Shown in pieces: positions 3,126 through 38,302 of a stretch of DNA of 57,368 bases. The position numbers and the translations under genes are program-made. This DNA comes from a virus. The stretch spans positions 1 through 57,368 of the IMG/VR virus record IMGVR_UViG_3300009610_000033. One strand, 5' to 3'. A model generated the notes under the pieces. The model saw only the letters and a program-made list of their open reading frames with translations. It was not told the origin of the DNA and ran no database searches. Each line of letters starts with the position of its first letter. Positions within the stretch are counted from its first letter, which is position 1.

Positions 3126-3632
3126 ATGATCCGACGTCTCAAGGGTCTGCGGACCCGAACCAAGGCGGCGCTGTGCGCCGCCATCACGCTCTTCGTGCTC
3201 GGCCTCGTCGCGCCGGCGACGACCCTCGCCGCGTCGCCGGCGATCCGCGTGGCCCAGGAGGTCCCGCTGCCCGACAACATCGAGCAGCTCGTCGCGGCCT
3301 TCCTCACCATCTCGGCGGGGGTGGCCACGGTGATCGGCCTGACCGGTCTCGGCAAGTGGCTCGCGAAGATCAGCGGCCGCGAGATCGGCGGCAACCAGGT
3401 GCGCGCGGTGCTGGGGGTCGCCGCGGTGGGGACGAGTGTGGTCTACGCCTCACTGTGCGCGTGCGCCGGCGTGGTCGCGTTCCCCGTCGGCGGCGACCAG
3501 AGCGAGATGCTGCGCTGGCTGTGGGCGAGTTCGGGCACGCTGATCCTGTTGTCCATGGCCGTGTGGAAGAAGTTCGTGCGCCAGGAGCCGGAGATCATCG
3601 AGCTGCCGGCGGTGTTCGGCTCGACGCAGTAG
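3126..3632 (+). CDS. Four-helix membrane protein, holin candidate
   Basis: 168 residues with four hydrophobic segments at about 13-36, 56-76, 93-118 and 131-148. The first could be a cleavable signal or signal anchor. A short charged tail (KKFVRQEPE) follows. Such a protein next to an endolysin is a natural holin or membrane-pore candidate that would release the lysin, although an XhlA-like lysis helper is also encoded at 56895. An AGGAGG site at 3113-3118 supports the ATG. It is the last gene of the rightward structural/lysis transcript and is followed by a strong bidirectional hairpin. No sequence family was recognised. Confidence 0.6.
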   Translation: MIRRLKGLRTRTKAALCAAITLFVLGLVAPATTLAASPAIRVAQEVPLPDNIEQLVAAFLTISAGVATVIGLTGLGKWLAKISGREIGGNQVRAVLGVAAVGTSVVYASLCACAGVVAFPVGGDQSEMLRWLWASSGTLILLSMAVWKKFVRQEPEIIELPAVFGSTQ

Positions 3633-3660
3633 GCGACGGAGCGAGGGAGTGGGGAAGAGC

Positions 3661-3689
3661 GAGGCCCCCGGTGACGAGCCGGGGGCCTC
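3661..3689. terminator. Bidirectional terminator between convergent genes
   Basis: A perfect 11-bp stem, GAGGCCCCCGG (3661-3671) with CCGGGGGCCTC (3679-3689), and a 7-base loop. It lies exactly between the end of the rightward transcript (3632) and the end of the leftward one (3703). The T-run is poor, as is common in high-GC genomes. Confidence 0.7.
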
Positions 3690-3702
3690 TGAGCTAGCTA
3701 TG

Positions 3703-4236
3703 TCATTGATCCTTTGCCGCCCGAGATGCCTCGGTGCTTGCGCCCTTGTCCACCTTCTCATCTGAGCGCCCCATGTAGGCGGTGGCGATGGTAGCTAGTG
3801 CCGGGATGAGGGCTACCAGTGATGCAACCGGCATTCCCATCAGAATTAGGCCGGTAGTGGCAGCCAGCGACAGGACAGCTATGGTTGCAGAGAGCCACTG
3901 GCCGCGACGAGTTATCAGCAATTCCTCGCGCTGGAGATCTAACTGCTGTTCCTGCAAGTCCTGCTGTCGCTCCATGAACCGGTGGCGGTGTTCCTGCTCG
4001 CGCTTGGCCATGAGAACGATTTCGGCCGGAGCGTCTGCCCACACGCGACCATACGCCGCGAGCTCGTCTGCGGGCGGCAGGGGGCCTGCGTGAAACTCGT
4101 GCTTCTCGATCTCAACTCGCGCCTCTCCCCAGCCATCACCGCCAATGGCGGCGTCCCCGTCATGGTCGAGATTGGACTGTGCGTCGGTCCGACGACGGGC
4201 AGATACTATTGGGCGCCGCGCCCTGCTCTTCGTCAC
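3703..4236 (-). CDS. DUF2335-family membrane protein
   Basis: 177 residues from a GTG start at 4236. After an acidic N-terminal region it carries the DUF2335 pattern GPLPPADELAAYGRVW, a Glu/Gln-rich helix likely to be a coiled coil, and two adjacent hydrophobic segments near the C-terminus (ATIAVLSLAATTGLILMG and the following stretch), ending in a short cytoplasmic-type tail. The function of the family is unknown. The start was chosen because the GTG lies 5 bases after the stop of the upstream gene; the same frame is open to 4548, but there the other frame is the better coding frame. It is the second gene of a two-gene cassette with its own promoter, so a lysogenic-conversion or superinfection-exclusion role is a reasonable guess only. 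Confidence 0.65.
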   Translation of the reverse strand: MTKSRARRPIVSARRRTDAQSNLDHDGDAAIGGDGWGEARVEIEKHEFHAGPLPPADELAAYGRVWADAPAEIVLMAKREQEHRHRFMERQQDLQEQQLDLQREELLITRRGQWLSATIAVLSLAATTGLILMGMPVASLVALIPALATIATAYMGRSDEKVDKGASTEASRAAKDQ

Positions 4237-4241
4237 GCGAC

Positions 4242-4490
4242 CTAAAGGCCATCCATCCCGGTCAACCGCTGTTGCATGGGCAACTGGCGGCGCTCGGCCT
4301 CGGCTGGAAACTCCGAGAAGGCCTTCCGGAAGTAGCCGCCAACGCACACCCAGTCGTAATACTGCGACAGAAGCGGGAGTGGCTGGATGGAACGTCGCTT
4401 GGGGGTATGAACACCGTACAGATCGTAGGCCCGAAACATCCCGGCGACGAAGATGGAACGGCGGCGGCGACCGACGTGATGAATTTCCAT
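4242..4490 (-). CDS. Small hypothetical protein of the DUF2335 cassette
   Basis: 82 residues, basic near the N-terminus and rich in aromatic residues in the middle (LSQYYDWVCVGGYFRKAF). The ATG at 4490 lies only 6 bases after the -10 box of a good promoter, so the messenger is probably leaderless. No family is recognised and there is no signal peptide or membrane segment. It is followed after 5 bases by the DUF2335 gene. The pair with its private promoter looks like a moron expressed from the prophage. Confidence 0.55.
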   Translation of the reverse strand: MEIHHVGRRRRSIFVAGMFRAYDLYGVHTPKRRSIQPLPLLSQYYDWVCVGGYFRKAFSEFPAEAERRQLPMQQRLTGMDGL

Positions 4491-4496
4491 AGCGCG

Positions 4497-4526
4497 AGTA
4501 TAGGCTCCTACGTTTTGTGACGTCAA
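4497..4526 (-). promoter_or_regulatory. Promoter of the DUF2335 cassette (leaderless start)
   Basis: On the minus strand TTGACG (4526-4521) is followed after 18 bases by TATACT (4502-4497). The predicted transcription start falls on or next to the ATG at 4490, so translation would begin at the 5' end of the messenger. A TGACGTCA palindrome (4518-4525) overlaps the -35 box and could be an operator. Confidence 0.7.
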
Positions 4527-4548
4527 ACCGTTTCGGAAAAGTGCCCAC

Positions 4549-5007
4549 TCACCCCGTCAGCAGCCGCACCGGCATCTTCCCCGACTCGTACGCCAGCGCC
4601 ACAGCGGGCAGCGCGTGGTCGCCCACCGTCAACCCGTCGGGCATCACCAGGTAGGCGAGCCACTCCGAGTCGAACGTGGCGATGCCGCTCTCCACGGCCT
4701 CAAGCTTCGCCTTGACCACAAGGGCCAGCGCCCGCCACCGCTGCTTCACGGCCTGTTCGTAGGCGCCGGCCGCCGAGCTCGCCGTGCGCAGCCGCCCCGT
4801 CTCGGTGTGCGTGAACTCGTCGTCCTCGGGATCCGGCAGCGGCACGACGATGCGCACCTGGCGGCCAGCCATGCGGAAGCCGACCATGCCCCGGGTGCCC
4901 TCCTCGCCGAACATGAAGCCGTCCGCACCGTAGCGGCGCAGGGTGGCACGGATCTCGGTTATGCTGCGGTCCTGGCTCACGGCCGTGTCGGCGGCGTAGC
5001 GTGCCAT
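4549..5007 (-). CDS. Conserved phage protein of unknown function
   Basis: 152 residues starting MARYAADTAV. The pattern is one often seen in tailed phages: an N-terminal RSITEIRATLRRYGADGF region, a short beta-rich middle with an acidic loop, then KQRWRALALVVKAKLEAVESGI and a C-terminal PDG..VGDHALP segment. Function is unknown. The start ATG overlaps the TGA of the upstream membrane-HTH gene by one base, which favours it over the in-frame ATG at 5025. It is the last gene of the leftward operon before the independent DUF2335 cassette. Confidence 0.7.
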   Translation of the reverse strand: MARYAADTAVSQDRSITEIRATLRRYGADGFMFGEEGTRGMVGFRMAGRQVRIVVPLPDPEDDEFTHTETGRLRTASSAAGAYEQAVKQRWRALALVVKAKLEAVESGIATFDSEWLAYLVMPDGLTVGDHALPAVALAYESGKMPVRLLTG

Positions 5008-5765
5008 CAGGTTGCGACCTCCCATCCTTGCCCATTCCGGTGCAGCTCCCCTGCCTCGATCATCCGCGCCACCGTCGTCGGGCTGGTCTCCGCCCGCCGG
5101 GCGAGCTCCCGCTGTGACACGCTCGGGTGCACCGCTGCAACGCCCCTGACACGCTCGCGCGGATCGGTGACCACCTGGTGCTCCACCTGATCGGCCACCG
5201 TTGCGGGGCGTTCCACCGGGGCCGGCACTGTGGCCACCAGGTCCGACGCGGGTAGCGCCTCCTGCTCCACCACCGGTGCGGGCGGTGCAACAGCCCCCCG
5301 CTCCGTGGCCGCCGATGTCTCCAGCACGCGGGCCAGGTAGAGCGCCAGCAACGGCAGCGTGGCGGACAGGGCGATCAGCTTTAGCTGGGAGTAGCGGGTG
5401 AGCGCGACGAAGGTGGCCACACCGCTAGCGTCGCCGGGACCAGCCACCACAGACAGGGCATGGTCGAAGTTGGCCAGAGCCGAGAGCGCCGCGAACACCG
5501 CCACGCCTGCCCACAGGTCGCGTGCCGGCTTCCCAGCGCGTGCCCGGGCCCCGACTCCCCACGCCAGGGCAATCAGGCCCACGTCCACCGCAACGGCCGC
5601 CATCGGCGCCGTGATCGGGGCGAGTGACCGCAGCCAGGCCGGGGCGCCGCCGTGCTCCAGCGTGCCGAACGTGCCGGCCACGTGTGCCCAGGACGCGACA
5701 AGCACGGTGGCCAGGGCCAGCCACAAAGCGTTTGCAGGCGTTGCGTAGCGTTGCAGGCGTTGCAT
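5007..5765 (-). CDS. Four-helix membrane protein with C-terminal HTH domain
   Basis: 252 residues. Hydrophobic segments at about 12-33, 50-73, 84-103 and 129-148 suggest four membrane helices. A Pro/Ala/Val-rich linker (155-205) leads to a helix-turn-helix at 212-243 (VSQRELARRAETSPTTVARMIEAG). A membrane-tethered DNA-binding protein next to an FtsK-type ATPase recalls Spd/Tra partners of actinobacterial conjugative plasmids, but homology is not shown. The start at 5765 has a GAGGG site 4-5 bases upstream and lies 7 bases after the previous stop; ATGs at 5795 and 5846 would overlap the previous gene. Confidence 0.65.
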   Translation of the reverse strand: MQRLQRYATPANALWLALATVLVASWAHVAGTFGTLEHGGAPAWLRSLAPITAPMAAVAVDVGLIALAWGVGARARAGKPARDLWAGVAVFAALSALANFDHALSVVAGPGDASGVATFVALTRYSQLKLIALSATLPLLALYLARVLETSAATERGAVAPPAPVVEQEALPASDLVATVPAPVERPATVADQVEHQVVTDPRERVRGVAAVHPSVSQRELARRAETSPTTVARMIEAGELHRNGQGWEVAT

Positions 5766-5772
5766 CTTTCCC

Positions 5773-6162
5773 TCACTCTCCAAACGCACGGCCATTCTCC
5801 TCCCACGTCGGTCCCGGCTGGTCCACCACGTCCGGCGTCGGCACACCGCTCAGCATCGCTGCCAGGTAGTTGGACGCGTCCGGTGCTGCCTGCCCGGTCA
5901 TCCCCTTCGTCAGTGCCATTGCCCGCATGGCGATCAGGTCTGCCTCGATCTGCAGGCGCAGCGCTGTGGCCCTGGCTTCCATCGCTTCACGGAAGCGCCG
6001 GAAGTCGATGCCGATCAACCACAGGACGAGGCACAGCAGACAGCCGCCGATGACGACCCAGGTGAGCCGGTCATCCAGGTACACCCGGTGAGCCATGAGC
6101 AGCACGGCGCCGGCGACGCCCACGCCGCCCATCACGCCGCCCGCCCGGAGCGCGCCGTCCAC
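5773..6162 (-). CDS. Two-helix membrane protein
   Basis: 129 residues with two hydrophobic segments (about 9-24 and 33-52) separated by a short charged loop, then a long amphipathic helix with Arg/Glu repeats (FRRFREAMEARATALR) and a Pro-rich tail. No family is recognised. It stands between the HNH-FtsK gene and the membrane-HTH gene in the same leftward operon, so the three may form one membrane-associated complex. The start follows a 70-base gap that contains a palindrome. Confidence 0.55.
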   Translation of the reverse strand: MDGALRAGGVMGGVGVAGAVLLMAHRVYLDDRLTWVVIGGCLLCLVLWLIGIDFRRFREAMEARATALRLQIEADLIAMRAMALTKGMTGQAAPDASNYLAAMLSGVPTPDVVDQPGPTWEENGRAFGE

Positions 6163-6201
6163 TCAGTCTACCGCCCGCCCACTGAACGGGAGGGTATGTA
6201 G

Positions 6202-6216
6202 TAGGCTAGTAGCCTA
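6202..6216. promoter_or_regulatory. Palindrome upstream of the two-helix membrane protein
   Basis: TAGGCT-AGT-AGCCTA (6202-6216), set in further TAGTAG repeats (6197-6220), is located in the only intergenic gap of the leftward operon. It may be an operator or internal control site; no clear promoter hexamers go with it. Confidence 0.4.
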
Positions 6217-6232
6217 GTAGGGGTGGGTGAAG

Positions 6233-7648
6233 TCATGCGACGGCCAGAGCTTGCAGGGCAGCGTCTCGACGGCGACGGGCGGCGTCCATCGCGCCACCGA
6301 ACTCGCGTTGGATGGCGGTGGCGGACGGCGGCAGACCTTCGCTCACGGCTCGCTCCACCGCCCAGCGGACCGCCTCATCGTCAGGCTTGCGCACGTTGCG
6401 AGTGTCGGTGACCACGGAGACCGGCGCCGCGGCCGGTTCCGCCTCGAGCTTCGCCAGCATGGCCCAGTCCGCCGGCCCGCCTAGCGCCGCCTGGATCCGC
6501 ACCGCACGGCCACCGCCGACGAGGATCATGTCGCCCTTCCCGGCCAGCCACTGCGCGCCGGTCTGGTCGATGATGACCCTGGAGCCCGCGGAGTCCTTCA
6601 CCTTGCCGGCGATTGACCAGGTCAACTGGTCCGTCAGCACCTTCGGCAGGTAGTCCCTCGTTGGCCGGTGCGTGGCCACGACCAGCTGCACGGCCCGCTT
6701 CCGACCGCGCTTGGCGATGTCGATGATCACGTCGCGCGTGGCGGCGTCCAGCATGTGGACCTCGTCGACGGCCACGACGAGCGGTCGCTGCCGGGGGTCG
6801 ATCGGGCGGGCGTCCATCAGCTGGCGCGCGTACAGGACGGCGTCCCTCGCCGCATCGACGTCGCGGGCGATCGCGCAGCGCAGCCTGGCTGCCCGGGCGA
6901 AGGGCTCGAACGTCTCCCCGTCGGCGTCAATCAGCACGAGCTCGGCGCCTACGGTATGCAGCTGGAAGACGATCACCTGCAGCATGGTGCTCTTGCCGCT
7001 CTGGGTGGCGCCGGCGATCAGCATGTGCGGCGAGGCGCCCAGGTCGACCATCGCCACCCGGTTCTCCGCGTCCACGCCCACGCCGAACCGGAGGCCCTGC
7101 CGGGGCATCGACGCCAGCGGCACGTCCCGCCGCGGCGACCGCGGGATCTCCACGCGCAGCTCGTCGCCGTAGGTATAGACGCGCGCCCGCGGATGCTTCG
7201 CTGCGGCCCGGGCTTCGGCCAATGCCTTGACGTCGATGTGCGCGTGGCCGATCGCCGGCTGCAGGCGCAGGGTCACGACGTGTGGGGCGATCGTCGGCGG
7301 CAGGGGCGAGGTGACGGTGCCGACGCGGAGGACGCGGGCCCACACGTGCAGCGTCTGCAGGACGGCGCGGCGGTATGGGCCTTCGGGGAGGGTGGTGATC
7401 CGGTTCGACTTCACCATGTTGCACCGAGCGCACAGCGCGCGAACGTTCGCCGGCACGTCGGGGCCCGGAGCGATGCGCGGGTCGCGAGGGTGCCGCGGCA
7501 GGATGTGGTCGCCGTGCATTGTCTCCAGGGTCAGCGTCGCCGGGCACTGGCCTTCGTGCCCCCCGCAGTCGCCGTAGCACTGGCAGCGGCCACCAGAGCG
7601 GCGGAAGGCGCCGCGGCGCAGGGCCTGCCAGCGGGGGGAGGTGATCAT
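6233..7648 (-). CDS. HNH endonuclease-FtsK/SpoIIIE ATPase fusion
   Basis: 471 residues with two domains not usually joined. Residues about 8-83 are a zinc-stabilised HNH nuclease: cysteines 22, 24, 28, 35, 73 and 76, the HGDHILPRH core (45-53), and NVRALCARCN (68-77). Residues about 180-400 are an FtsK/HerA-type DNA-pumping ATPase with Walker A GATQSGKST (213-221), Walker B VVAVDEVH (291-298) and a sensor-like VVATHRPTRD (323-332). The last 60 residues resemble a small helical DNA-recognition tail (AIQREFGGAMDAARRRRDAAL). An ATPase that tracks on DNA and carries its own nuclease could act in DNA transfer, partition or defence. It is the central gene of an operon that also encodes two membrane proteins. 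The start overlaps the upstream gene by ATGA. Confidence 0.8.
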   Translation of the reverse strand: MITSPRWQALRRGAFRRSGGRCQCYGDCGGHEGQCPATLTLETMHGDHILPRHPRDPRIAPGPDVPANVRALCARCNMVKSNRITTLPEGPYRRAVLQTLHVWARVLRVGTVTSPLPPTIAPHVVTLRLQPAIGHAHIDVKALAEARAAAKHPRARVYTYGDELRVEIPRSPRRDVPLASMPRQGLRFGVGVDAENRVAMVDLGASPHMLIAGATQSGKSTMLQVIVFQLHTVGAELVLIDADGETFEPFARAARLRCAIARDVDAARDAVLYARQLMDARPIDPRQRPLVVAVDEVHMLDAATRDVIIDIAKRGRKRAVQLVVATHRPTRDYLPKVLTDQLTWSIAGKVKDSAGSRVIIDQTGAQWLAGKGDMILVGGGRAVRIQAALGGPADWAMLAKLEAEPAAAPVSVVTDTRNVRKPDDEAVRWAVERAVSEGLPPSATAIQREFGGAMDAARRRRDAALQALAVA

Positions 7649-8139
7649 GCGGGCTCAGGTTCCATCAGCCGGCGCGCAGCAGCATACTCGCCGTCTGGGT
7701 CCAGCCACTTCAACCGTCGGCGAAGCTGTGAGACCTGGGCCTCCGCCGAGCGGATCATCTCGGCGCCCTGGACGTTGGCCTCCACGCCGCTCTGGTACGC
7801 GCCAAAGTAGAAGTCGCGTTCGTCGCGCAGCCGCCGCACCTCGGCCACCAGCGTCAGCACTTCTGCAGGGTTCGCGGCGGCGATGAAGGAGGCGTTGGCG
7901 TGCCGCTCATCGTAGTCAATGATTGTGCTGGCTCGGGTACCCGCCACCATGACACCTGCCGGGGAGAACGGCGACCGCTTCCGCGGCATGGGGGCATGGA
8001 GAGGGTCGCGGGCCGCAGACGCATGGATCGTGGGGTAGGTCGCAAGGGCGCTATGCGCCACCTTCCACGGCCCCGGCGTTGCTTCCCCCGCCAGCCGTTC
8101 CAGCTCCGCCAACTGCGCCTCGCTCAGCGGCTCAGGCAT
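7645..8139 (-). CDS. Ea22-like phage protein
   Basis: 164 residues. The N-terminus has the ATPGPWK motif (about 18-24) typical of Ea22-like accessory proteins of tailed phages; the middle contains repeats of NASFIAAANPAEVLTLVAE type and the C-terminal half is a long charged helix. Function in the family is not settled. The start at 8139 overlaps the upstream stop by 8 bases and was preferred to the far ATG at 8244, which lies inside the DUF4326 gene. Confidence 0.65.
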   Translation of the reverse strand: MPEPLSEAQLAELERLAGEATPGPWKVAHSALATYPTIHASAARDPLHAPMPRKRSPFSPAGVMVAGTRASTIIDYDERHANASFIAAANPAEVLTLVAEVRRLRDERDFYFGAYQSGVEANVQGAEMIRSAEAQVSQLRRRLKWLDPDGEYAAARRLMEPEPA

Positions 8140-8497
8140 TGGCCACCTCCAGCAGCACATCAGCGTGGCACGGCTCGCCCTCGCGGCAGAAGCACGCCAG
8201 GTCGCGGCCGCGCAGCTCGGAGCGGGCCAGCTCGAAGGGGTCACACTTGAACCGGGCCCGCCAGTGAAGGTGCAGCTCGTAGGCCTCGCTGTAACGCTCG
8301 TTGCTCTGAAGGTGCAGCAGGGCAGGCGACCAGTCGCCGCGCAGGGTGTTCCGGTACAGGGCGATCGCCAGCTCGGCGCCCCAGACCTCCACGCGGTACG
8401 GGTTGCCCCACTTGGACGGGCGCGTGACGCTGACCGCGCCCTCGGGCATCCGCCAGCCGCGCGTGCGCTTGCGCTGGATGCGGCGCGGCTCAGCCAT
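8132..8497 (-). CDS. DUF4326-family protein
   Basis: 121 residues. It shows the two signatures of the family: VTRPSKWGNPYRV near residue 24-36 and LRGRDLACFCREGEPCHADVLL near the C-terminus, whose Cys/His pairs may bind metal. DUF4326 proteins are frequent in phage and mobile-element genomes and have no proven activity. The start at 8497 overlaps the previous stop by 8 bases, like its neighbours. Confidence 0.75.
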   Translation of the reverse strand: MAEPRRIQRKRTRGWRMPEGAVSVTRPSKWGNPYRVEVWGAELAIALYRNTLRGDWSPALLHLQSNERYSEAYELHLHWRARFKCDPFELARSELRGRDLACFCREGEPCHADVLLEVANA

Positions 8498-8714
8498 TGC
8501 CCACCTCGAACGACAGCGCCTCAATGCGGTCCGCCCAGTGCTGCAGTCCCGCCGGCCGCATCATCACACACCGCGTGCCATCGGACTCGAACACGTCACG
8601 GGTCCGGTCAGCAGCCATCGCCCGCAACTCGTCGGCGATCTCGACCAGCCTCACGGACGGGGGACGGATACGGACGGCGAGGTTACTCGTCTGGGCTGTC
8701 GTCGGCTTCGGCAT
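8490..8714 (-). CDS. Small hypothetical protein
   Basis: 74 residues with a conserved-looking helix VRLVEIADELRAMAADRTRDV and a C-terminal QHWADRIEALS segment. No motif is recognised. It overlaps the ribbon-helix-helix gene upstream by 32 bases and the DUF4326 gene downstream by 8 bases, so it is probably translated as part of the operon. Confidence 0.5.
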   Translation of the reverse strand: MPKPTTAQTSNLAVRIRPPSVRLVEIADELRAMAADRTRDVFESDGTRCVMMRPAGLQHWADRIEALSFEVGNG

Positions 8715-8880
8715 CGGCGGGCTCCTGTTGGTCTGGTAGGAGGATGCCGCGTAGCCGTAGCTGCCGGAGCGCCATTCTGAGCACCGCGGTCGGCGAGATG
8801 CCGAGGTTCCGGACGTAGTGATCGACCGTCGCCTGTTCCTCGTCTGTGAGCCTGATGCTCATCGGTGCGCGCTTCGCCAT
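8683..8880 (-). CDS. Ribbon-helix-helix (CopG-like) regulator
   Basis: 65 residues. PMSIRLTDEEQATVDHYV forms the beta-ribbon and first helix, and NLGISPTAVLRMALRQLRLRG the second, which is the pattern of ribbon-helix-helix DNA-binding dimers; an acidic tail follows. As first gene of the leftward operon it is likely the autoregulator of the promoter 31-59 bases upstream, where inverted GCAGCGCAT/ATGCGCTGC half-sites overlap the -35 region. The start at 8880 follows CCGAGG; an ATG at 8904 is the alternative. Confidence 0.7.
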   Translation of the reverse strand: MAKRAPMSIRLTDEEQATVDHYVRNLGISPTAVLRMALRQLRLRGILLPDQQEPADAEADDSPDE

Positions 8881-8910
8881 CCTCGGGAGTGTAGCGGCAT
8901 TCACGGCGGG

Positions 8911-8939
8911 ATTCTAGCGCGAAGCGCAGCGCATGTCAA
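8911..8939 (-). promoter_or_regulatory. Leftward promoter of the accessory operon
   Basis: On the minus strand TTGACA (8939-8934), a 17-base spacer and TAGAAT (8916-8911) form a near-consensus sigma-70 promoter. The -35 box lies inside the inverted repeat 8926-8947. Confidence 0.85.
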
Positions 8940-8947
8940 TGCGCTGC
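8926..8947. promoter_or_regulatory. Inverted-repeat operator between divergent promoters
   Basis: GCAGCGCAT (8926-8934), a 4-base centre and ATGCGCTGC (8939-8947) form a perfect 9-bp inverted repeat; a third half-site TGCGCTGG lies at 8955-8962. The repeat covers the -35 box of the leftward promoter and abuts that of the rightward one. The adjacent ribbon-helix-helix gene is the natural candidate for the binding protein. Confidence 0.7.
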
Positions 8948-8948
8948 A

Positions 8949-8977
8949 TTGCACTGCGCTGGACGACCGCGTATCAT
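8949..8977 (+). promoter_or_regulatory. Divergent rightward promoter
   Basis: TTGCAC (8949-8954), a 17-base spacer and TATCAT (8972-8977). It would transcribe the 9.0-9.3 kb region, which holds a strong hairpin, a direct repeat and one small possible gene. Its spacer carries one operator half-site. Confidence 0.6.
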
Positions 8978-9001
8978 TCCGTCGCCGCATGGGAGGGAGA
9001 T

Positions 9002-9033
9002 GGGCCGCCGGCAGGGTGCACTGCCGGCGGCCC
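9002..9033. terminator. Perfect 12-bp stem-loop downstream of the divergent promoter
   Basis: GGGCCGCCGGCA (9002-9013) and TGCCGGCGGCCC (9022-9033) pair around an 8-base loop, about 20 bases into the rightward transcript. There is no T-run. It may be an attenuator, the body of a short RNA, or a terminator for leftward transcripts from 9058. Confidence 0.45.
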
Positions 9034-9037
9034 GGTC

Positions 9038-9097
9038 GGGGAGATCACTCGCCGACACCTCCAAATAATAGCACGGGCGTTCTGTGGGGAGATCACT
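9038..9097. repeat. 12-base direct repeat around an SOS-like operator
   Basis: GGGGAGATCACT occurs at 9038-9049 and again at 9086-9097, 48 bases apart, on either side of the GCACGGGCGTTC operator at 9071-9082. It may be a second regulator's binding site. Confidence 0.5.
9065..9082 (-). promoter_or_regulatory. SOS-box-like operator and -10 box, leftward promoter (site 1)
   Basis: Minus strand: GAACGCCCGTGC (9082-9071) is followed immediately by TATTAT (9070-9065). The same operator/-10 arrangement precedes int and the LexA-like gene. No good -35 box is seen. A transcript from here would run as a roughly 180-base leader into the ribbon-helix-helix operon. Confidence 0.6.
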
Positions 9098-9287
9098 AAG
9101 CAGGCCCGCTGCGCGCCGGCGCCGGTCCGTGCCGCCAGACGACGAGGCCGATGTCGAGGGCCTCGGCGAGTTCCTGCGACGGGTAGAGGAAGCCGAGGCC
9201 GAGGACCCGGACGAGCCTGGGCGCTGGGCGGCGTTCTTCGCGCGGCTGTCGCGGCTCATCCCAGGCCGCGAAGACCCGACGGAGTGA
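9084..9287 (+). CDS. Small acidic hypothetical protein (uncertain start)
   Basis: Up to 67 residues; the convincing part is the acidic helix EGLGEFLRRVEEAEAEDPDE followed by RWAAFFARLSRL. A GTG at 9129 would give a 52-residue product without the Arg-rich N-terminus. No ribosome site is evident for either start. It is the only plausible gene that the rightward promoter at 8949-8977 could serve. Confidence 0.35.
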   Translation: MGRSLSRPAARRRRSVPPDDEADVEGLGEFLRRVEEAEAEDPDEPGRWAAFFARLSRLIPGREDPTE

Positions 9288-9370
9288 GGCTCAGCGGCGT
9301 GTCGCGGGTACCCATCCTGTACCCTAGTTGCGGCTGACGGCGGCCCGTGCCGGCTGACAAATGCAGGCAT

Positions 9371-10705
9371 TTAGGCCGCGTTTACACTGTCGGAATGACC
9401 ATCATCGGTGGCCTCTGACGACGGGTGGCCCGCCTCCAAATCCGCAGGTTGCAGGTTCGAGTCCTGTCCCTCCTGCCACGAAGTTCCCTTTTGGAGAGGG
9501 CCGTCAGCGTCGAAGCTGGCGGCCCTTCGTGTTTCGTACCCTACGCCTACCCTAGTTGACTCTGGCGAGGCCTCCGCGGGGTCGAGTCCGAGGGCCGCGT
9601 CGAGCTTGCCGATCATACTGTCCAGCGCGCCCGGAACCACGTACGCATAGGTCTCCGTGACCCGCAGCTCGCAGTGGCCCATGAGATCCCGGATCACCAC
9701 CAGCGGCACCCCCTGGTCCTGCAGCAGCGCGGCGAAGACGCGACGCAGCGCGTGCCACCGGATGGGCTTCAGGCCGTGGGACTTCAGGATGATCTTGAAG
9801 TTGTTGGTCAACGACGTGCCGTCCCGCATCCCGCCGGTTGGGTTGGCGAAGACGAACTCGCCGCCTTCCCAGGCGTCGCCGGCGAGGATGCGGTCCTCCT
9901 CCATCTGCTGTCGCCGTAGCGCGAGCGCTTGGATGGCGAGGGCAGCGAGCGGGATTGGTCGCTGGCTCTTCGCGGTCTTGGGGCGGCCGAGCACTCGCTT
10001 CCCGTCCCGGACGTCAACCGCGTGCCGCACGTTGACCTGGCCGCGGGCCTCGTCGACGTCCTGCCACCGAAGGCCGAGCTGCTCGCCCTGGCGCATGCCG
10101 GTAGCGATGGCAAACATGATGACCGGCAGATGGCGGCTGTCCTTGAAGGCGTCGAGGATCTGCCGCGCGTCCGCCGGCGTGAGGACCTCGCGCTCGAACA
10201 CCGGTCGCTCGCCCTTGGGCATCTTGGCGAGGGACGCGGCGTTGGTGGGCAGCCCGTAGTCGATCTGGGCCTGCTTAAGCGCGCCGGACAGGGTCGCCCT
10301 GGCGTTGCGGACGGTGGACTCGGAGAGCCCGCGGGAAAGGAGCTTGGCCAACATCCGCGTCACATGGCCGGGCACCAGGTCGACTAGCTTTAGCTTGCCG
10401 ATCGCCGGGTTGATGTAGTCGGTGACGTGCTGCGAGTAGCTCCGGAAGGTGCGCGAGCGCACGGATCCCTTGGCGTGTAGCTCCAGCCAGTCGGTGAGGT
10501 ACTCTCCGACCGTAACGCCGTCCCGCGGCTTGGACATGCCACGCTCGGCGTCGGAGCGGGCTGCCCGGGACTTGGCCATGGCGCCGGACTTGGTGTCGGC
10601 GTAGAAGGAGCACTGCCGGCCGTCGACGACGACCCGTGCCTCCCAGAAGGTCGAGCCATCCTTTCGTGTCCGCTGCCGGATGCTGCCTTCCCCACGTCCT
10701 CGCAT
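9371..10705 (-). CDS. int: Tyrosine integrase
   Basis: 444 residues. It has an N-terminal three-strand arm-binding domain (about 1-60), a SAM-like core-binding domain (65-165) and a catalytic domain (172-365). Catalytic residues are visible: R205 (ATGMRQGEQLGLRW), K246 in TAKSQR, H318 and R321 (HALRR), H344 (GHCELR) and nucleophile Y353 (TETYAYV). It catalyses site-specific integration and excision at the attachment site. The final 35 residues (from QEGQDSNLQPADLEAG) are encoded by the reverse of the tRNA-like att core, so integration will replace the C-terminal tail; the catalytic domain is untouched. An AGGAGGTG site precedes the ATG, and an SOS-like operator/-10 element sits 25-42 bases upstream. 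Confidence 0.93.
   Translation of the reverse strand: MRGRGEGSIRQRTRKDGSTFWEARVVVDGRQCSFYADTKSGAMAKSRAARSDAERGMSKPRDGVTVGEYLTDWLELHAKGSVRSRTFRSYSQHVTDYINPAIGKLKLVDLVPGHVTRMLAKLLSRGLSESTVRNARATLSGALKQAQIDYGLPTNAASLAKMPKGERPVFEREVLTPADARQILDAFKDSRHLPVIMFAIATGMRQGEQLGLRWQDVDEARGQVNVRHAVDVRDGKRVLGRPKTAKSQRPIPLAALAIQALALRRQQMEEDRILAGDAWEGGEFVFANPTGGMRDGTSLTNNFKIILKSHGLKPIRWHALRRVFAALLQDQGVPLVVIRDLMGHCELRVTETYAYVVPGALDSMIGKLDAALGLDPAEASPESTRVGVGYETRRAASFDADGPLQKGTSWQEGQDSNLQPADLEAGHPSSEATDDGHSDSVNAA
9434..9478 (+). other. attP: attP core: 3' half of a tRNA-Trp gene
   Basis: The segment reads as a tRNA 3' half: anticodon loop CTCCAAA (9434-9440, anticodon CCA), stem TCCGC, variable AGGTT, T-arm GCAGG-TTCGAGT-CCTGT (9451-9467), acceptor strand CCCTCCT, G and encoded CCA (9476-9478). 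The 5' side does not complete the anticodon stem, so this is not a whole tRNA. It is the expected identity segment by which a prophage restores the host tRNA gene on integration. It lies within the 3' end of int. Confidence 0.85.
9497..9526 (+). terminator. Hairpin just beyond the tRNA-derived core
   Basis: AGGGCCGTCAGC (9497-9508) pairs with GCTGGCGGCCCT (9515-9526) with one G-T pair and a 6-base loop, then TCGTGTTT. After integration it would lie about 20 bases after the restored tRNA-Trp and could end its transcript. Confidence 0.55.
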
Positions 10706-11057: not shown

Positions 11058-12665
11058 GTGGACAACACCCTCTACTACGGCGACAACCTCGACATCCTCC
11101 GACGGTACATCCCCGACGAGTCCGTCGACCTGGTGTACTTGGATCCCCCGTTCAACTCCAACGCCACGTACAACGTCCTGTTCGGCGACGCCAAGGGCGC
11201 GATGTCGACGGCGCAGATCCAGGCGTTCGACGACACGTGGCACTGGGACCACAGCGCTGCTGAGGCGCTCGACGATGTGCTGCAGTACGGCGGCCGGCCT
11301 GCGGAGGCGATGCGGGCGTTCGAGCTCCTGCTCGGCCATGGGGACATGCTGGCGTACCTGTCGATGATGGCGCCGCGGCTGATCGAGCTGCGGCGGGTGC
11401 TGAAGCCGACGGGTAGCATCTACCTGCACTGCGACACTACGGCAAGCCACTACCTGAAGGTGTTGATGGACGCGGTGTTTGGGCCGGCGCAGTTCCGGAA
11501 TGACATCGTATGGCAGCGGACCGGGGCGCATAACGATGCACGCCGCTTCGGTCGTGTCACCGACACCATCCTGTACTACACCAAGGGTGCCGACTGCACG
11601 TTCCATCCGCAGTACGAGGTGTACGACCCAGCCTACATCGAGAAGCGCTACAGATATCTCGATCCTGACGGCCGTCGCTTTTGGGCGAACACCGCGACGA
11701 GTCCCAACCCGAGGCCGAACATGATGTACGAGTGGAAGGGTCAACCAAGCCCGCCAAATGGTTGGCGCTTTGAGCGTGCCACGATGGAGCGCATGGAACG
11801 GGAGGGCCGACTCTACTACTCTAAGTCGGGCATGGTCTACGTGAAGAACTACCTGGACGAACAGAAGGGGCGCCCAGCGCAGAATCTGTGGACCGACATT
11901 GTGATGTCGAAGTCCGGTGCCGAACGCCTCGGCTACCCCACCCAGAAGCCGCTCGCCCTCCTGGAGCGCATCATTGCCGCCAGCTCCAACGAGGGCGATG
12001 TCGTCCTCGACCCCTTCTGTGGGTGCGGCACCGCCGTGGTCGCCGCGCAGAAGCTCGGCCGGCGGTGGATCGGCATCGACCTCACGCATCTGGCCATCAA
12101 CCTCATGCGCACGCGGATCAAGGACACGTTCGGCGAAGAGGTGAAGTTCAAGGTGGTGGGAGAGCCGACGACGGAGCAGGAAGCGGCAGAGCTCGCCCGC
12201 ACCGACCCGTACCAGTTCCAGTTCTGGGCCCTGGGCTTGGTGGGCGCGCGGCCGGCGGAGCAGAAGAAGGGTGCGGACCAAGGCATTGACGGCCGGCTGT
12301 ACTTCCGCGACGACCCGAAGGCGCCGTCGAAGCAGGTGATCATCAGCGTGAAGGCGGGCAAGCTGCAGGCCGGCTACGTGCGCGACCTGGTCGGGGTGAT
12401 CGCCCGGGAGAAGGCAGCCATCGGCGTGCTGATCTCGATGGGTGAGCCGACCAAGCCCATGCGCGAGGAGATCGCCAGCCACGGGTTCTACGAGAGCCCG
12501 TGGGGCACGCGCCACCCGCGCATGCAGATGCTCACCATCGAGCAGCTCATGGCCGGCAAGCGCATCGACTACCCGGCGAGCGGGCAGCGTAGCGAGACGT
12601 TCCGGCAGGCGCCGCGGGCGTCGGGGGATGCGGGGCGGCAGGGCGAGTTGTTCGGGGAGGAGTAG
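11058..12665 (+). CDS. DNA methyltransferase fused to a nuclease-like domain
   Basis: 535 residues from a GTG start. Residues 1-370 are an amino-methyltransferase of the beta (type III/Mod-like) order: catalytic DPPF at 29-32 and the SAM-binding DPFCGCGT at 318-325, transferring a methyl group to adenine N6 or cytosine N4. Residues about 385-500 carry a restriction-endonuclease-like fold signature: GADQGIDGRLYF, then QVIISVKAGK near 430, reminiscent of Mrr-type PD-(D/E)XK enzymes, but the residue before VK is Ser where Glu or Gln is usual. It could be a one-protein modification-restriction enzyme or a methylase with an inactive recognition module. It lies alone between int and the repressor, the usual place for lysogeny-module cargo. 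Confidence 0.85.
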   Translation: MDNTLYYGDNLDILRRYIPDESVDLVYLDPPFNSNATYNVLFGDAKGAMSTAQIQAFDDTWHWDHSAAEALDDVLQYGGRPAEAMRAFELLLGHGDMLAYLSMMAPRLIELRRVLKPTGSIYLHCDTTASHYLKVLMDAVFGPAQFRNDIVWQRTGAHNDARRFGRVTDTILYYTKGADCTFHPQYEVYDPAYIEKRYRYLDPDGRRFWANTATSPNPRPNMMYEWKGQPSPPNGWRFERATMERMEREGRLYYSKSGMVYVKNYLDEQKGRPAQNLWTDIVMSKSGAERLGYPTQKPLALLERIIAASSNEGDVVLDPFCGCGTAVVAAQKLGRRWIGIDLTHLAINLMRTRIKDTFGEEVKFKVVGEPTTEQEAAELARTDPYQFQFWALGLVGARPAEQKKGADQGIDGRLYFRDDPKAPSKQVIISVKAGKLQAGYVRDLVGVIAREKAAIGVLISMGEPTKPMREEIASHGFYESPWGTRHPRMQMLTIEQLMAGKRIDYPASGQRSETFRQAPRASGDAGRQGELFGEE

Positions 12666-22940: not shown

Positions 22941-23068
22941 TCCGGAACGCCGCGCGCTGGCTCGTCTGGGCGGCGCTGGCGCTGGTCGCCGTGCTGTGGA
23001 GCGCTGGGGTTGAGTTCTTCACCGACGACGAGGGCGTGGTGGACGGGCTGATCGGAGATGACCGTTGA
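22937..23068 (+). CDS. Single-pass membrane miniprotein
   Basis: 43 residues from a GTG overlapping the previous stop. One hydrophobic segment (ARWLVWAALALVAVLWSAGV, residues about 6-25) with a short acidic tail. Too small to assign. Confidence 0.45.
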   Translation: MIRNAARWLVWAALALVAVLWSAGVEFFTDDEGVVDGLIGDDR

Positions 23069-23090
23069 ACGAACCAAGGAGGGTACCGAA

Positions 23091-24479
23091 GTGAAGCAGC
23101 GAACCGAAGGCCGGCTGATGTACTCGTTATCCCAGCTCCAGGCGTGGAAGCGCAACTACAACCGCGGCGACGTCCACGCGATCGCCGCCAGCATCCAGCG
23201 CTGGGGATTCAACGGCGCGCTCCGTGTGTGGTCCGGCGACGATAGCCAGGCGCCCACGGTGATCGCCGGCAACCACACGTACCTCGCGCTCCTGCAGCTG
23301 AAGGACGAGGGCGCCGATCCACCCGTGCACGTCGACGTCGCCCCGGACGGTAGCTGGCAGGTGGCGTGCGTCGACGTCTCCCACCTGGCCTACCACGAGG
23401 CCGAAGCGTTCGCCATCGCCGACAACCGCGTCGCATCCCTGGCCACGCACGACGACGAGAAGCTCGCGCTACTCCTGCGCGAGATCTCCGATCAGAACCC
23501 GGAGGACCTCGCGGCCATCGGGTACGACCTGGACGACATCGAGAACCTGCTCCGCCGCCTTGGCGACCTGGACGACGATCGCCCCGCCGCGCCGGAAGCA
23601 CGCCTCGACCGGCTCAAGGAGCTGAAGGAGGAGTGGGGCACGGCAGCCGGCCAGCTGTGGGTCATCCCCAGCGCCACGTGCCCGGGCAAGGAGCACCGCA
23701 TCGTCTGCGGCGACGCCACCGACGGTGCGACAGTCGCCCGGCTGATGGCCGGCGAGCGCGCGGTGCTCTTCGCCACCGACCCGCCCTATCTGGTCGACTA
23801 CGATGGCACCAACCACCCACAGGCCAAGGGCACCGGCGCACGTGAGAAGAGGATCGCCAACAAGGACTGGGACGAGGTCTACGACGACAAGTGGGACGAC
23901 GCCTCGCAGGGCGCCGACCTCTACCGCGGCTTCATTCAGGCGGCCATCGAACACGCCATCACCGAGGACGCCGCCTGGTACTGCTGGCACGCGTCGCGGC
24001 GCCAGGCAATGCTCGAGGGCGTATGGGAGGAGTTCGGCGCGTTCGTGCACCAGCAGATCATCTGGGCAAAGAGCCGGGGCGTGCTCACGCGCAGCTGGTA
24101 CCTGTGGAGCCACGAGCCGTGCTTCTTCGGCTGGATCCGCGGCCAGAAGCCCAAGCGCGTGGCGGACAACCACCCAGGCAGCGTCTGGCAGGTGGCCACG
24201 GCCGACGCCGACACCACCGGCGATCACCCGACGTCGAAGCCCACCGCGCTCTGGGAGCTGCCCATCGAGCAGCACACCAGCCGCGGCGACCTGATCTACG
24301 AACCCTTCAGCGGCAGCGGCACCGCGCTCGTGGCGGCCGAGCGCACCGGCCGCATCGCGTACGCCTGCGAACTCCAGCCCGCGTTCGTCGCCGTTGCCCT
24401 CGACCGGCTCGCGCAGATGGGCTTGGAGCCTCGGCTGGAGAGTGCCGAAACAGTGACCGAGACCGTGACCGAACAGTAG
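23091..24479 (+). CDS. ParB-like/DNA methyltransferase fusion
   Basis: 462 residues. Residues about 10-120 are a ParB/RepB N-terminal domain (YNRGDVHAIAASIQRWGF, VIAGNHTYLALLQLK, AFAIADNRVASLA). Residues about 195-445 are an amino-methyltransferase with catalytic DPPYLVDY near 236 and the SAM-binding EPFSGSGTA motif near 407. Such fusions are frequent in phages and methylate adenine or cytosine, perhaps to protect DNA from host restriction; CTP or DNA binding by the ParB part is unproven. A GTG at 23091 with AAGGAGGG 8 bases upstream is preferred over the ATG at 23058. Confidence 0.9.
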   Translation: MKQRTEGRLMYSLSQLQAWKRNYNRGDVHAIAASIQRWGFNGALRVWSGDDSQAPTVIAGNHTYLALLQLKDEGADPPVHVDVAPDGSWQVACVDVSHLAYHEAEAFAIADNRVASLATHDDEKLALLLREISDQNPEDLAAIGYDLDDIENLLRRLGDLDDDRPAAPEARLDRLKELKEEWGTAAGQLWVIPSATCPGKEHRIVCGDATDGATVARLMAGERAVLFATDPPYLVDYDGTNHPQAKGTGAREKRIANKDWDEVYDDKWDDASQGADLYRGFIQAAIEHAITEDAAWYCWHASRRQAMLEGVWEEFGAFVHQQIIWAKSRGVLTRSWYLWSHEPCFFGWIRGQKPKRVADNHPGSVWQVATADADTTGDHPTSKPTALWELPIEQHTSRGDLIYEPFSGSGTALVAAERTGRIAYACELQPAFVAVALDRLAQMGLEPRLESAETVTETVTEQ

Positions 24480-26412: not shown

Positions 26413-27080
26413 GTGGAGAGCCAAAGCGATGTGGAGCCAAGACCAGGAGCGGCAAGCCGTGCCAGCAGTGGGCGGTGACCGGCCGCGAGCGCTGCCGCAT
26501 GCACGGCGGTCGGCAGCCGCGTGGCCTGGCGCACCCAGCCACCAAGCACGGGCGCTTCTCCAAGGACCTGCCGGTGCGGCTGCTGGCGGACTACGAGGCG
26601 GCGCTCAAGGATCCGGACCTGGTGGCGCTGCACGAGGAGATGGCGCTCGTCCAGGCGCGCGAGGCGGACCTGGTGCGCCGCGTCAGCACGCGGGAGGCGG
26701 GCGAGAGCTGGGGCGACGTGCGCGCGGCGATGGCAGCGTTCCGGAAGGCCCAGCGCGACGACGACGCACCGGCGGCGGCCGCGGCGCTCAAGAGGATGGA
26801 GGCGGCGCTTGCCGAGGGCGAGGACGACTACGCGGCATGGGCCGAGCTCCTGGCAACCATCGAGCAGCGCCGCAAGCTGGCCGACACCGAGCGGCGCCGG
26901 CTCGAGGCGCTGGAGCAGAACATCAACCGACAGCAGGCGCTGGTGCTCGCGGCCGCGCTGCAGGACGCGGTGAGGCGCCATGTCCCTGACCCAGCAGTCC
27001 TATCAGCCATCGGCCTTGAGCTCGGTCGCATCCTCGCTCACAACGGGGCTGTTCGCCGAGATGGTGGCGGCGATGGTTGA
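26409..27080 (+). CDS. terS: Terminase small subunit
   Basis: 223 residues. The N-terminus CGAKTRSGKPCQQWAV...CRMHGG, followed by a HG-rich loop, is the cysteine/histidine signature of many phage small terminases; the rest is a long helical region with a coiled-coil segment (WAELLATIEQRRKLAD, ERRRLEALEQNINRQ). It recognises the packaging site and stimulates the large subunit. It overlaps the large subunit by about 100 bases. Confidence 0.75.
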   Translation: MSGEPKRCGAKTRSGKPCQQWAVTGRERCRMHGGRQPRGLAHPATKHGRFSKDLPVRLLADYEAALKDPDLVALHEEMALVQAREADLVRRVSTREAGESWGDVRAAMAAFRKAQRDDDAPAAAAALKRMEAALAEGEDDYAAWAELLATIEQRRKLADTERRRLEALEQNINRQQALVLAAALQDAVRRHVPDPAVLSAIGLELGRILAHNGAVRRDGGGDG

Positions 27081-29325: not shown

Positions 29326-29432
29326 ACTACCCGTTGTGGTGGCCAGCACGGCACCAACCGAATAGCAGGGCCGCAACTGTGTGAACACACCGCAGTCCCG
29401 CCCGTCGTCCGTGGCCGCTCGCCCCAACAGGC

Positions 29433-29452
29433 GCCCGCCAGGGATGGCGGGC
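29433..29452 (+). terminator. Leader terminator before the portal gene
   Basis: GCCCGCCA (29433-29440) and TGGCGGGC (29445-29452) pair over GGGA, followed by TCTTTTGCTTT. The arrangement promoter, hairpin, CTCTT/TTTA tract, GGCCACGG and start codon recurs at 53079-53177. Confidence 0.75.
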
Positions 29453-29479
29453 TCTTTTGCTTTAGGCCACGGGGACGGA

Positions 29480-37341: not shown

Positions 37342-37667
37342 TGCCACGAGGAAGCGGGCTGGGAAGCGTCGTGACCGACCTGGTCGACCGCCGTGGCCAG
37401 AGCGTGGTGCTCGTGCGCGCCGGAGCCGCGCTCGGCGCCCAGGACATGGTGCTGGACGTCTACGTCCTGGGCGCCGGCGAGGTGGCGATGATCGAGGCGG
37501 CCAGTGGCCAGGCTGGACTGACGTCGCTGAAGATCATCGGCGGCACGGACCTGGACATCGACCGCGGCGATCAGTTCGTGGCCGGCGACCTGCAGTACCG
37601 GGTGGTGCTGGTCAGCCCACCCGACGGCGTGCAGCGCATCGCCTACGCCCAGGGGCTGGAACACTGA
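37341..37667 (+). CDS. Head-closure (stopper) protein
   Basis: 108 residues, beta-rich (QSVVLVRAG, MVLDVYVLGAGEV, DRGDQFVAGDLQYRVVLVSPP), fitting the small barrel of SPP1 gp16-like stoppers. Position between adaptor and tail-completion genes supports it. Coupled by TGATG overlap on both sides. Confidence 0.6.
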   Translation: MPRGSGLGSVVTDLVDRRGQSVVLVRAGAALGAQDMVLDVYVLGAGEVAMIEAASGQAGLTSLKIIGGTDLDIDRGDQFVAGDLQYRVVLVSPPDGVQRIAYAQGLEH

Positions 37668-38302
37668 TGAAGGTGATCGTCGTCACCGGCCACACTGGTG
37701 AGGGGTGGGATGCCATCGCTGCAATCACCTACCCAGGCCTGGCTGCCTACTGCGACCGGCACGGGTATGACCTGACCCGGGCGCCGCTGGCCTCGTGTTC
37801 CGAGGGAAGGCCGGCGTCCTGGGGGAAGGTGCCGGCGCTCATGGCGGCACTGCGCCACGCCGACGTTGCCGTGTGGATCGACGCCGACGCCGTGATGTAC
37901 CCGGTGGCGCCGCCGATCCACGAGGCACTGAAGCACGACGCCTGGCAGGCGATGGTGGTGCACCAGACGCCGGAGGGCACGGTGCCCGGCTGCGGCGTGT
38001 GGGTGGTGACGCGCCCTATGGTGCCCGTGCTGCGCCTGGCGTGGGCGGACTACCGTGACCACCGGTGGTGGGAGCAGGCGGCCATGCAGCGGCTCATGGG
38101 CTTCGAGCCGGACGCGCTGCCGGTGACGCAGCGGCTCGACACAGTAGTGTGGCGACACACTGCACTGCTGGACGCGCGCTGGAGCGTACTGCCGGGCGAC
38201 GATCGCCCGGATCCGTACATGCGCCACGCACCGGGCGGACGGCCGCTGGTGATGCGTGAGGCCATGCTGCGCGAGTGGGCCAGAGAGGCGGTGCCCGCGT
38301 GA
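37667..38302 (+). CDS. Glycosyltransferase (GT34/GT-A-like) in the connector block
   Basis: 211 residues. MKVIVVTGHTGEGW and SWGKVPALMAALRHADVAVWIDADAVM (in two parts) carry the DXD motif D72-A-D74 for metal-sugar-nucleotide binding, and WWEQAAMQRLM replaces the usual acidic DQ..L motif. The layout matches the galactosyl/alpha-hexosyl transferase family. It could add sugar to virion or host surface structures. The enzyme gene lies between head-closure and tail genes, in register with coupled TGATG starts, so it is cotranslated with virion proteins. Confidence 0.8.
   Translation: MKVIVVTGHTGEGWDAIAAITYPGLAAYCDRHGYDLTRAPLASCSEGRPASWGKVPALMAALRHADVAVWIDADAVMYPVAPPIHEALKHDAWQAMVVHQTPEGTVPGCGVWVVTRPMVPVLRLAWADYRDHRWWEQAAMQRLMGFEPDALPVTQRLDTVVWRHTALLDARWSVLPGDDRPDPYMRHAPGGRPLVMREAMLREWAREAVPA

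What the first reader, a model, noticed from the sequence alone, without database searches (positions are those of the whole stretch)
6233..7648. HNH nuclease fused to an FtsK-type ATPase
One open frame joins a zinc-bound HNH domain (HGDHILPRH, six cysteines) to a full FtsK/HerA motor (Walker A GATQSGKST, Walker B VVAVDEVH). The combination of a DNA pump and a nicking or cutting module in one chain is not part of any standard phage packaging or replication set. It may be a transfer, partition, plasmid-state or anti-competitor system.
Basis: partly seen in the sequence, partly recalled or inferred. Interest (0 to 1): 0.82.

Follow-up and report, generated by a model that had tools for sequence, protein, structure and literature searches.

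The report
Phage DNA pump with HNH nuclease
A bacterial virus carries one protein that joins a DNA-cutting domain to a DNA-pulling motor, probably a motor-driven cutter that the dormant virus uses against rival DNA, an arrangement for which no close relative was found.

Summary
Residues 1-83 are an HNH nuclease domain that keeps all 16 columns invariant in 27 viral HNH domains. Residues about 86-412 fold as an FtsK motor (VIA-align Z 31.1; HerA about 19). The C-terminus weakly resembles FtsK gamma. The record encodes its own terminase, portal, head protein and integrase: a temperate tailed phage, so this is not its packaging motor. The gene lies in a leftward operon headed by a near-consensus promoter-like site, between a lysin gene and an attP-like site. 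No relative with both domains was found in phages, plasmids, viral contigs or the genomes sampled; one contig has an HNH frame running into FtsK, possibly two genes. At least 12 viral FtsK relatives carry another nuclease (PD-(D/E)XK) instead, six with a RecT gene upstream. Best reading (45%): a captured FtsK pump driving an HNH cutter on invading DNA. Rivals: recombination or DNA-end processing, host-DNA attack, a structural or accidental HNH, DNA transfer. No activity or expression was tested. New variant of a known kind.

The parts
6233..7648 (-). HNH-FtsK fusion gene, 471 aa
7400..7648 (-). HNH nuclease domain, residues 1-83 (D47 H48 ... N68 ... C73 C76 N77 K80)
   Evidence: alignment with 27 viral HNH domains; model; fold matches
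7133..7393 (-). FtsK alpha-like region, residues about 86-172
   Evidence: structural alignment to FtsK 2iut spans model 86-412; low pLDDT there; not recognised by Pfam FtsK_alpha; 12 of 200 shuffles as good
6434..7132 (-). FtsK RecA-like motor domain, residues 173-405
   Evidence: Pfam, alignment, pLDDT above 90 over most of it, VIA-align
6986..7012 (-). Walker A GATQSGKST, residues 213-221
6755..6778 (-). Walker B VVAVDEVH, residues 291-298
6236..6373 (-). C-terminal helices, residues 426-471, resembling the FtsK gamma domain (weak)
   Evidence: cellular FtsK matches reach residue 463; pairwise alignment; 3 of 200 shuffles as good
8911..8939 (-). promoter-like TTGACA-17-TAGAAT (11 of 12) heading the leftward operon
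   Evidence: 2 such sites in 3600-9450, 0.3 expected
8926..8947 (.). perfect 8-bp inverted repeat over the -35 box, possible operator
7645..8244 (-). upstream gene, Ead/Ea22-like and DUF6221-like (weak), overlaps the fusion's start by 4 bases
5773..6162 (-). downstream small protein with two hydrophobic segments
   Evidence: hydropathy
5007..5795 (-). downstream membrane protein (three segments over the hydropathy threshold, a fourth by eye) with C-terminal HTH-like end (weak)
4549..5025 (-). downstream gene of family phrog_17260
9371..10705 (-). tyrosine integrase
   Evidence: Pfam Phage_integrase 2.8e-20
9433..9478 (.). tRNA 3'-half-like stretch overlapping the integrase 3' end, probable attP
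   Evidence: read by eye; ARAGORN finds no whole tRNA

Best explanation
This is a phage-borne, probably soluble, motor-driven nuclease: an FtsK-type double-stranded-DNA pump without a membrane anchor that carries an HNH nuclease in its place. Likely working, inferred: six chains ring the DNA, ATP hydrolysis reels it through, and the HNH domains on the N-terminal (alpha) face nick or cut it as it passes. Likely role, inferred: expressed from the prophage as a superinfection-exclusion or restriction factor against rival phage or plasmid DNA, with self protected by modification (two N6/N4 methyltransferase genes are in the same genome) or by timing. Shown here: domain order, intact HNH and Walker motifs, FtsK fold, operon place, promoter-like site, attP-like neighbourhood. 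Not shown: hexamer, activities, expression, target.
For: Fold: VIA-align Z 31.1 to 2iut_A, 322 residues, rmsd 3.1, model 86-412; Foldseek E 6.2e-22 to 6t8g_A. The 16 HNH columns that are invariant over 28 rows include C22, C28, H45, D47, H48, N68, C73, C76, N77 and K80 of this protein, and the 15 best VIA rows for the HNH model are HNH/beta-beta-alpha-metal proteins by their titles or by recall. Place: leftward operon with its own promoter-like site, beside an attP-like site and across it from the integrase; [quoted passage not shown] Precedent: nucleases joined to HerA/FtsK pumps in anti-invader systems (PMC10853773 and PMC12839542, passages). PADLOC best hits of the motor are mad8 1.3e-17 and SspH 8.1e-14, though plain FtsK relatives hit the same models too.
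Against: No relative with both domains was found whose neighbours could support defence. Partners described for capture systems in PMC10853773 (Orc/CDC6, D5 helicase, DndFG) were not seen among the 28 window proteins scanned with Pfam (not all ORFs). The nearest nuclease-FtsK chains in viruses often have RecT upstream, which points to recombination. An HNH fold can be non-catalytic: 2 of the 15 best VIA rows are DotN or its complex (identity of the second by recall). Expression in lysogens is not shown. The phrog_17260 neighbour is a poor marker of integrases: 12 of 80 loci gave an integrase hit with three query integrases. The methyltransferase genes are not in the operon.
Confidence: 0.45

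Rival explanations
1. A recombination or replication enzyme: the pump moves along phage DNA and HNH processes ends or branches, as PDDEXK-FtsK fusions with RecT upstream presumably do.
For: At least 12 of the 80 viral FtsK relatives kept carry an N-terminal PDDEXK_1 nuclease (30 of the 80 were given to Pfam). Of 11 upstream ORFs found for these 12, 6 are RecT by Pfam; the other 5, two of them identical, resemble one another and by eye look like annealing proteins. Mycobacteriophage FtsK genes lie near Ku genes.
Against: No RecT or other annealing protein was recognised among the 28 window proteins scanned, and the gene lies in the accessory operon on the int side, not among the replication genes. 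HNH is an endonuclease fold rather than a resection exonuclease (general knowledge).
Confidence: 0.2
2. A lytic-cycle factor that attacks or reels in the host chromosome.
For: A motor close to cellular FtsK with a gamma-like end could read host orienting sequences; HNH could then cut host DNA. All of this is inference.
Against: Place in the leftward operon between the lysin gene and attP; no evidence for host-specific targeting; the gamma match is weak.
Confidence: 0.1
3. The HNH fold is structural or an accident: a free-standing phage HNH gene fused to an accessory FtsK, or a zinc adaptor like DotN on the DotL coupling ATPase, with no cutting.
For: Free-standing HNH proteins of this type are common in viral contigs (208 relatives among 316 candidate stretches). 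DotN is among the fold matches. In L098 an HNH frame runs into FtsK but an AGGAGG and ATG lie between them, so such neighbours can arise without a true fusion.
Against: All 16 columns invariant over 28 HNH rows are kept. In the window no in-frame ATG lies between residue 78 and residue 180, and the motor fold begins at about residue 86, right after HNH; GTG or TTG starts in the linker were not tested.
Confidence: 0.15
4. A DNA-transfer or partition pump of TcpA/TraB type, HNH being the nicking function.
For: TcpA of pCW3 is the next fold after FtsK (Z 28.7); two membrane-protein genes lie just downstream.
Against: The DUF2637/Spd-type test of the neighbour failed; no relaxase or other transfer gene was recognised among the 28 proteins scanned; the record encodes terminase, portal and head protein.
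Confidence: 0.08

Closest known systems
Cellular FtsK/SpoIIIE (e.g. P. aeruginosa FtsK motor, PDB 2iut, 6t8b)
   Same: RecA-like pump with FtsK motifs; alpha-like region; C-terminus resembling gamma
   Different: No N-terminal membrane domain, an HNH domain instead; a stretch of about 17 residues before Walker B is missing; at most 37% identity (34% for the same protein by BLAST)
Phage HNH endonucleases (e.g. GVE2 HNH, PDB 5h0m)
   Same: Same motif; invariant residues kept; best VIA match
   Different: Those are small separate proteins; here fused to a motor, with two short inserts (residues 25-27 and about 33-38, the latter holding Cys35)
HerA/FtsK capture systems, including DndH/SspH (PMC10853773; SspH models of PADLOC)
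   Same: A captured HerA/FtsK pump joined to an endonuclease
   Different: HNH rather than REase; a 471-aa chain with the nuclease at its N-terminus; none of the described partner genes seen in the 28 proteins scanned
Viral PDDEXK-FtsK fusions with RecT upstream (seen here)
   Same: Nuclease N-terminal to the FtsK alpha and motor domains in one viral chain
   Different: Different nuclease superfamily; RecT not seen here
HerA-NurA, HerA-DUF4297 and HerA-SIR2
   Same: Ring pump coupled to an effector
   Different: Two proteins; HerA clade (Z about 15 to 19) rather than FtsK

Membership tests
FtsK/SpoIIIE translocase | RecA-like FtsK motor with Walker A, Walker B (DE), ATxRP and SR..I.D..GA..L.G.GDM motifs | tested here: met
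FtsK/SpoIIIE translocase | FtsK alpha domain | tested here: inconclusive
   structural alignment spans it, but low pLDDT there, Pfam FtsK_alpha does not match, 12 of 200 shuffles as good
FtsK/SpoIIIE translocase | gamma winged helix | tested here: inconclusive
   matches extend to residue 463, 3 of 200 shuffles as good; Pfam FtsK_gamma not reported for this protein; model shows two helices without a wing
FtsK/SpoIIIE translocase | N-terminal membrane domain | tested here: not met
   the only hydrophobic stretch over threshold is 222-240, inside the motor
HNH endonuclease | HNH motif residues and Cys pairs | tested here: met
   PHROG 2.9e-6; Pfam just under its cut-off
HNH endonuclease | beta-beta-alpha-metal fold | tested here: inconclusive
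   model has the elements and its best matches are HNH-type structures, but mean pLDDT is 68.5, best Foldseek E is 3.6e-3 and best Z is 6.2: consistent, not decisive
HNH endonuclease | DNA cleavage | not testable with these tools
   needs an assay
HerA/FtsK capture systems | HerA/FtsK pump joined to a nuclease | tested here: met
HerA/FtsK capture systems | described partners (Orc/CDC6, D5-type helicase, DndFG, DUF4007 and the like) | tested here: not met
   none among the 28 window proteins scanned with Pfam; not every ORF was scanned
Conjugative FtsK-type pumps (TraB, TcpA) with Spd/DUF2637 membrane partners | DUF2637-type partner gene | tested here: not met
   PF10935 no match at E 10; hhalign probability 0.1 against a shallow profile of four near-identical sequences
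Phage packaging ATPase | is the packaging motor of the virus | tested here: not met
   a terminase large subunit is encoded at 26980-28794 (PHROG 1.4e-31)

The most novel reading that the evidence does not exclude
One-chain HNH-FtsK is a new class of motor-driven nuclease, and nuclease-FtsK chains (HNH here, PD-(D/E)XK with RecT upstream elsewhere) are a recurrent, unnamed viral toolkit in which a captured chromosome pump supplies processivity to a phage nuclease for DNA warfare or recombination.
Probability: 0.3. Interest if true: 0.75.

Novelty: new variant of a known kind. Interest (0 to 1): 0.5.

Why it matters
If it works as proposed, a temperate phage has built a two-step DNA weapon, pump plus cutter, into a 471-residue chain, simpler than the multi-protein systems that couple HerA/FtsK pumps to nucleases. 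It would be a tractable model of how a ring motor feeds a nuclease, and together with the PDDEXK-FtsK chains it would show that viruses repeatedly arm chromosome pumps.

Tried and rejected
Close relatives by exact peptide patterns: none (viral contigs: 9 stretches, none a relative; genomes: 59 stretches, none a relative). Back-translated Walker A with TCN serine codons only: 0 matches in viral contigs. Terminase and integrase as guides to kin: none. HNH motif expression around the FtsK loci (160 loci): 2 hits, in L165 and L170, neither in frame with FtsK; the expression also misses L098's HNH, so it is not exhaustive. FtsK homology in the 80 HNH loci: none; in the 80 phrog_17260 loci: none at a meaningful E-value. 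A family tree of 78 motors could not place the protein (end branch 7.26, no starred set), so its cellular or viral source is not shown by the tree. DUF2637/Spd for the neighbour: resemblance by eye, not supported. Close kin of the virus and its host were not found; a Chloroflexota host is a guess from recalled habit.

Literature: no paper in the held library bears the hyphenated names FtsK-HNH, HNH-FtsK, HNH-HerA or HerA-HNH (0 papers); 8 papers hold FtsK, HNH, fusion, phage and translocase and 10 hold FtsK, HNH, HerA and fused. Further searches; the six papers listed were irrelevant. Passages were seen in PMC7824862, PMC10853773 (12 of 24 places), PMC12839542 (12 of 15 places), PMC8190038, PMC5512222, PMC6563490, PMC6426596 and PMC6426606; none of the passages shown describes this chain. 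Other papers were seen only in search listings; most subscription papers are not held.

Full report
What is there. The frame at 6233-7648 is real but lies on the minus strand. It gives a 471-aa protein whose ATG overlaps the stop of the gene before it as ATGA, so it is probably translated by coupling; no good ribosome site precedes it (best 3 of 6 to AGGAGG). A frame this long is not impossible by chance here (8 of 200 resamples); the case rests on homology.

HNH domain. Residues 1-83 match HNH families in PHROGs (best 2.9e-6) and Pfam just under the cut-off (20.7 against 21.4 bits). HNH proteins of phages and plasmids align with it, at weak E-values (best 3e-3). In an alignment with 27 viral HNH domains the 16 invariant columns include D47, H48, N68, C73, C76, N77 and K80 of this protein. 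A profile of that alignment finds the GVE2 phage HNH endonuclease, Cas9, IscB and McrA among solved structures (the profile is dominated by the other rows). The separate AlphaFold2 model is of moderate confidence (mean pLDDT 68.5) and has strand 45-48, strand 69-72, helix 74-82. Its best matches are HNH-type proteins, first 5h0m (Z 6.2, 76 residues, rmsd 3.9), with Foldseek E-values no better than 3.6e-3. Two of the 15 best rows are DotN or its complex with a coupling ATPase (that DotN lacks nuclease activity is recalled), so the fold alone does not prove cutting.

Motor. The full-chain model (mean pLDDT 78.8) is above 90 over most of 180-390. It matches the FtsK motor at Z 31.1 (2iut_A, 322 residues, model 86-412), then TcpA (28.7), EccC (26.7), the DndH C-domain (20.6) and HerA (19.4 or less). 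The alpha region is within the structural match but has low confidence, and the Pfam alpha model does not see it; in a shuffle test 12 of 200 did as well. The C-terminus aligns with the gamma domain of cellular FtsK, 3 of 200 shuffles doing as well, without Pfam support. The chain has no N-terminal membrane segment. Relative to cellular FtsK a stretch of about 17 residues before Walker B is missing.

Relatives. With the single sequence: none in viral contigs or genomes. tblastn gave 67 phage records and 41 plasmid records, none covering 80% of the query; all rows listed (40 and 25) match the motor only. With an FtsK alignment: 468 relatives in viral contigs, best 80 kept, at most 34% identical. 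Ten further genomes or records: 9 matched, from residue 118 on at the earliest. In 21 genomes of one phylum all matched, none before residue 76. In 296 genomes of the phylum of a Streptomyces, 194 matched at 1e-9 and no listed match began before residue 74; not all matches were listed and in most genomes five candidates were scored. The best were chromosomal-FtsK-sized frames at up to 37% identity over 185-463.

Other nuclease-FtsK chains. Among the 80 viral relatives I gave 30, picked largely for long or unusual N-termini, to Pfam together with the window protein: 12 have PDDEXK_1, ahead of FtsK alpha and motor in the two looked at singly. For 11 of the 12 an upstream ORF was found; 6 of 11 are RecT by Pfam; the other 5, two of them identical, resemble one another and by eye look like annealing proteins. 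I infer motorised exonuclease-annealing pairs. One contig, L098, has an HNH-like frame running into an FtsK with hydrophobic segments (HNH seen by PADLOC ZorE models at 2.6e-8, not by Pfam at 0.1), but an AGGAGG and ATG stand between the two, so it may be two genes.

Setting. G000 is a virus record classed as linear at most. It encodes a terminase large subunit, portal and head protein, a GH25 lysin, an integrase, a recombination directionality factor-like protein and an O-like replication protein: a temperate tailed phage. TPT-rich secreted proteins suggest a Chloroflexota host (recalled habit of that phylum, not tested). A tRNA-3'-half-like stretch at 9433-9478 overlaps the integrase end, the usual look of attP. 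Left of it a promoter-like site (11 of 12) with a perfect inverted repeat on its -35 box heads a run of leftward genes: a weak RHH protein, an unknown, DUF4326, an Ea22-like protein (weak), the HNH-FtsK, a protein with two hydrophobic segments, a membrane protein with a weak HTH, and phrog_17260. In an integrated prophage this operon would lie at the end opposite the integrase (inference). In the mycobacteriophage Sbash, lysogenically expressed genes, including a defence pair, lie near the prophage ends (PMC6426596, passages). In phage MooMoo a phrog_17260 gene lies between integrase and lysis genes, but over 80 viral loci only 12 gave an integrase hit with three query integrases, so the family is no strong marker.

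Reading. The simplest account is an accessory, motor-driven nuclease. Anti-invader use is favoured by place and by the reported habit of HerA/FtsK pumps being captured with nucleases for counter-invader systems (PMC10853773, PMC12839542, passages). It cannot be filed as a member of those systems: their described partners were not seen in the 28 proteins scanned. The RecT-linked chains make a recombination role the strongest rival. No computation here can decide; assays can.

Novelty. The exact chain was not found in the searches named, nor named in the papers searched, but the principle of a pump joined to a nuclease is known. Hence new variant of a known kind, interest 0.5: a single orphan with untested function should not score higher.

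Noticed in passing
L097, L103, L116, L129, L130, L141, L147, L160, L163, L165, L168, L170: Viral PDDEXK_1-FtsK fusions (12 of 31 proteins scanned; this list of the 12 is by their N-termini); 6 of 11 upstream ORFs are RecT by Pfam. A motorised exonuclease partner of RecT would be worth its own study.
   Followed up: partly
window 9433-9478: tRNA 3'-half-like stretch overlapping the integrase 3' end, probable attP (by eye).
   Followed up: partly
window 8926-8947: Perfect 8-bp inverted repeat GCAGCGCA-N6-TGCGCTGC over the -35 box of the operon promoter; the only exact copy in the window.
   Followed up: partly
window 11058-12665: N6/N4 DNA methyltransferase with a C-terminal Mrr/inactive-REase-like domain.
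   Followed up: no
window 23058-24479: A second N6/N4 methyltransferase, with a ParB-like N-terminus by eye.
   Followed up: no
window 37667-38302 and 39191-40417: Two glycosyltransferase-like genes downstream of the head gene, the second matching GT4-conflict.
   Followed up: no
L008, L093: Mycobacteriophage FtsK-like genes lie within about 2 kb of Ku-like genes.
   Followed up: no
window 4549-5025: phrog_17260: 501 relatives among candidate stretches in viral contigs, and 13 phage records of Mycobacterium, Leptospira and unnamed hosts; function unknown.
   Followed up: partly
window 29381-31933: Portal-like protein of 850 aa with a C-terminal phrog_24776 match.
   Followed up: no
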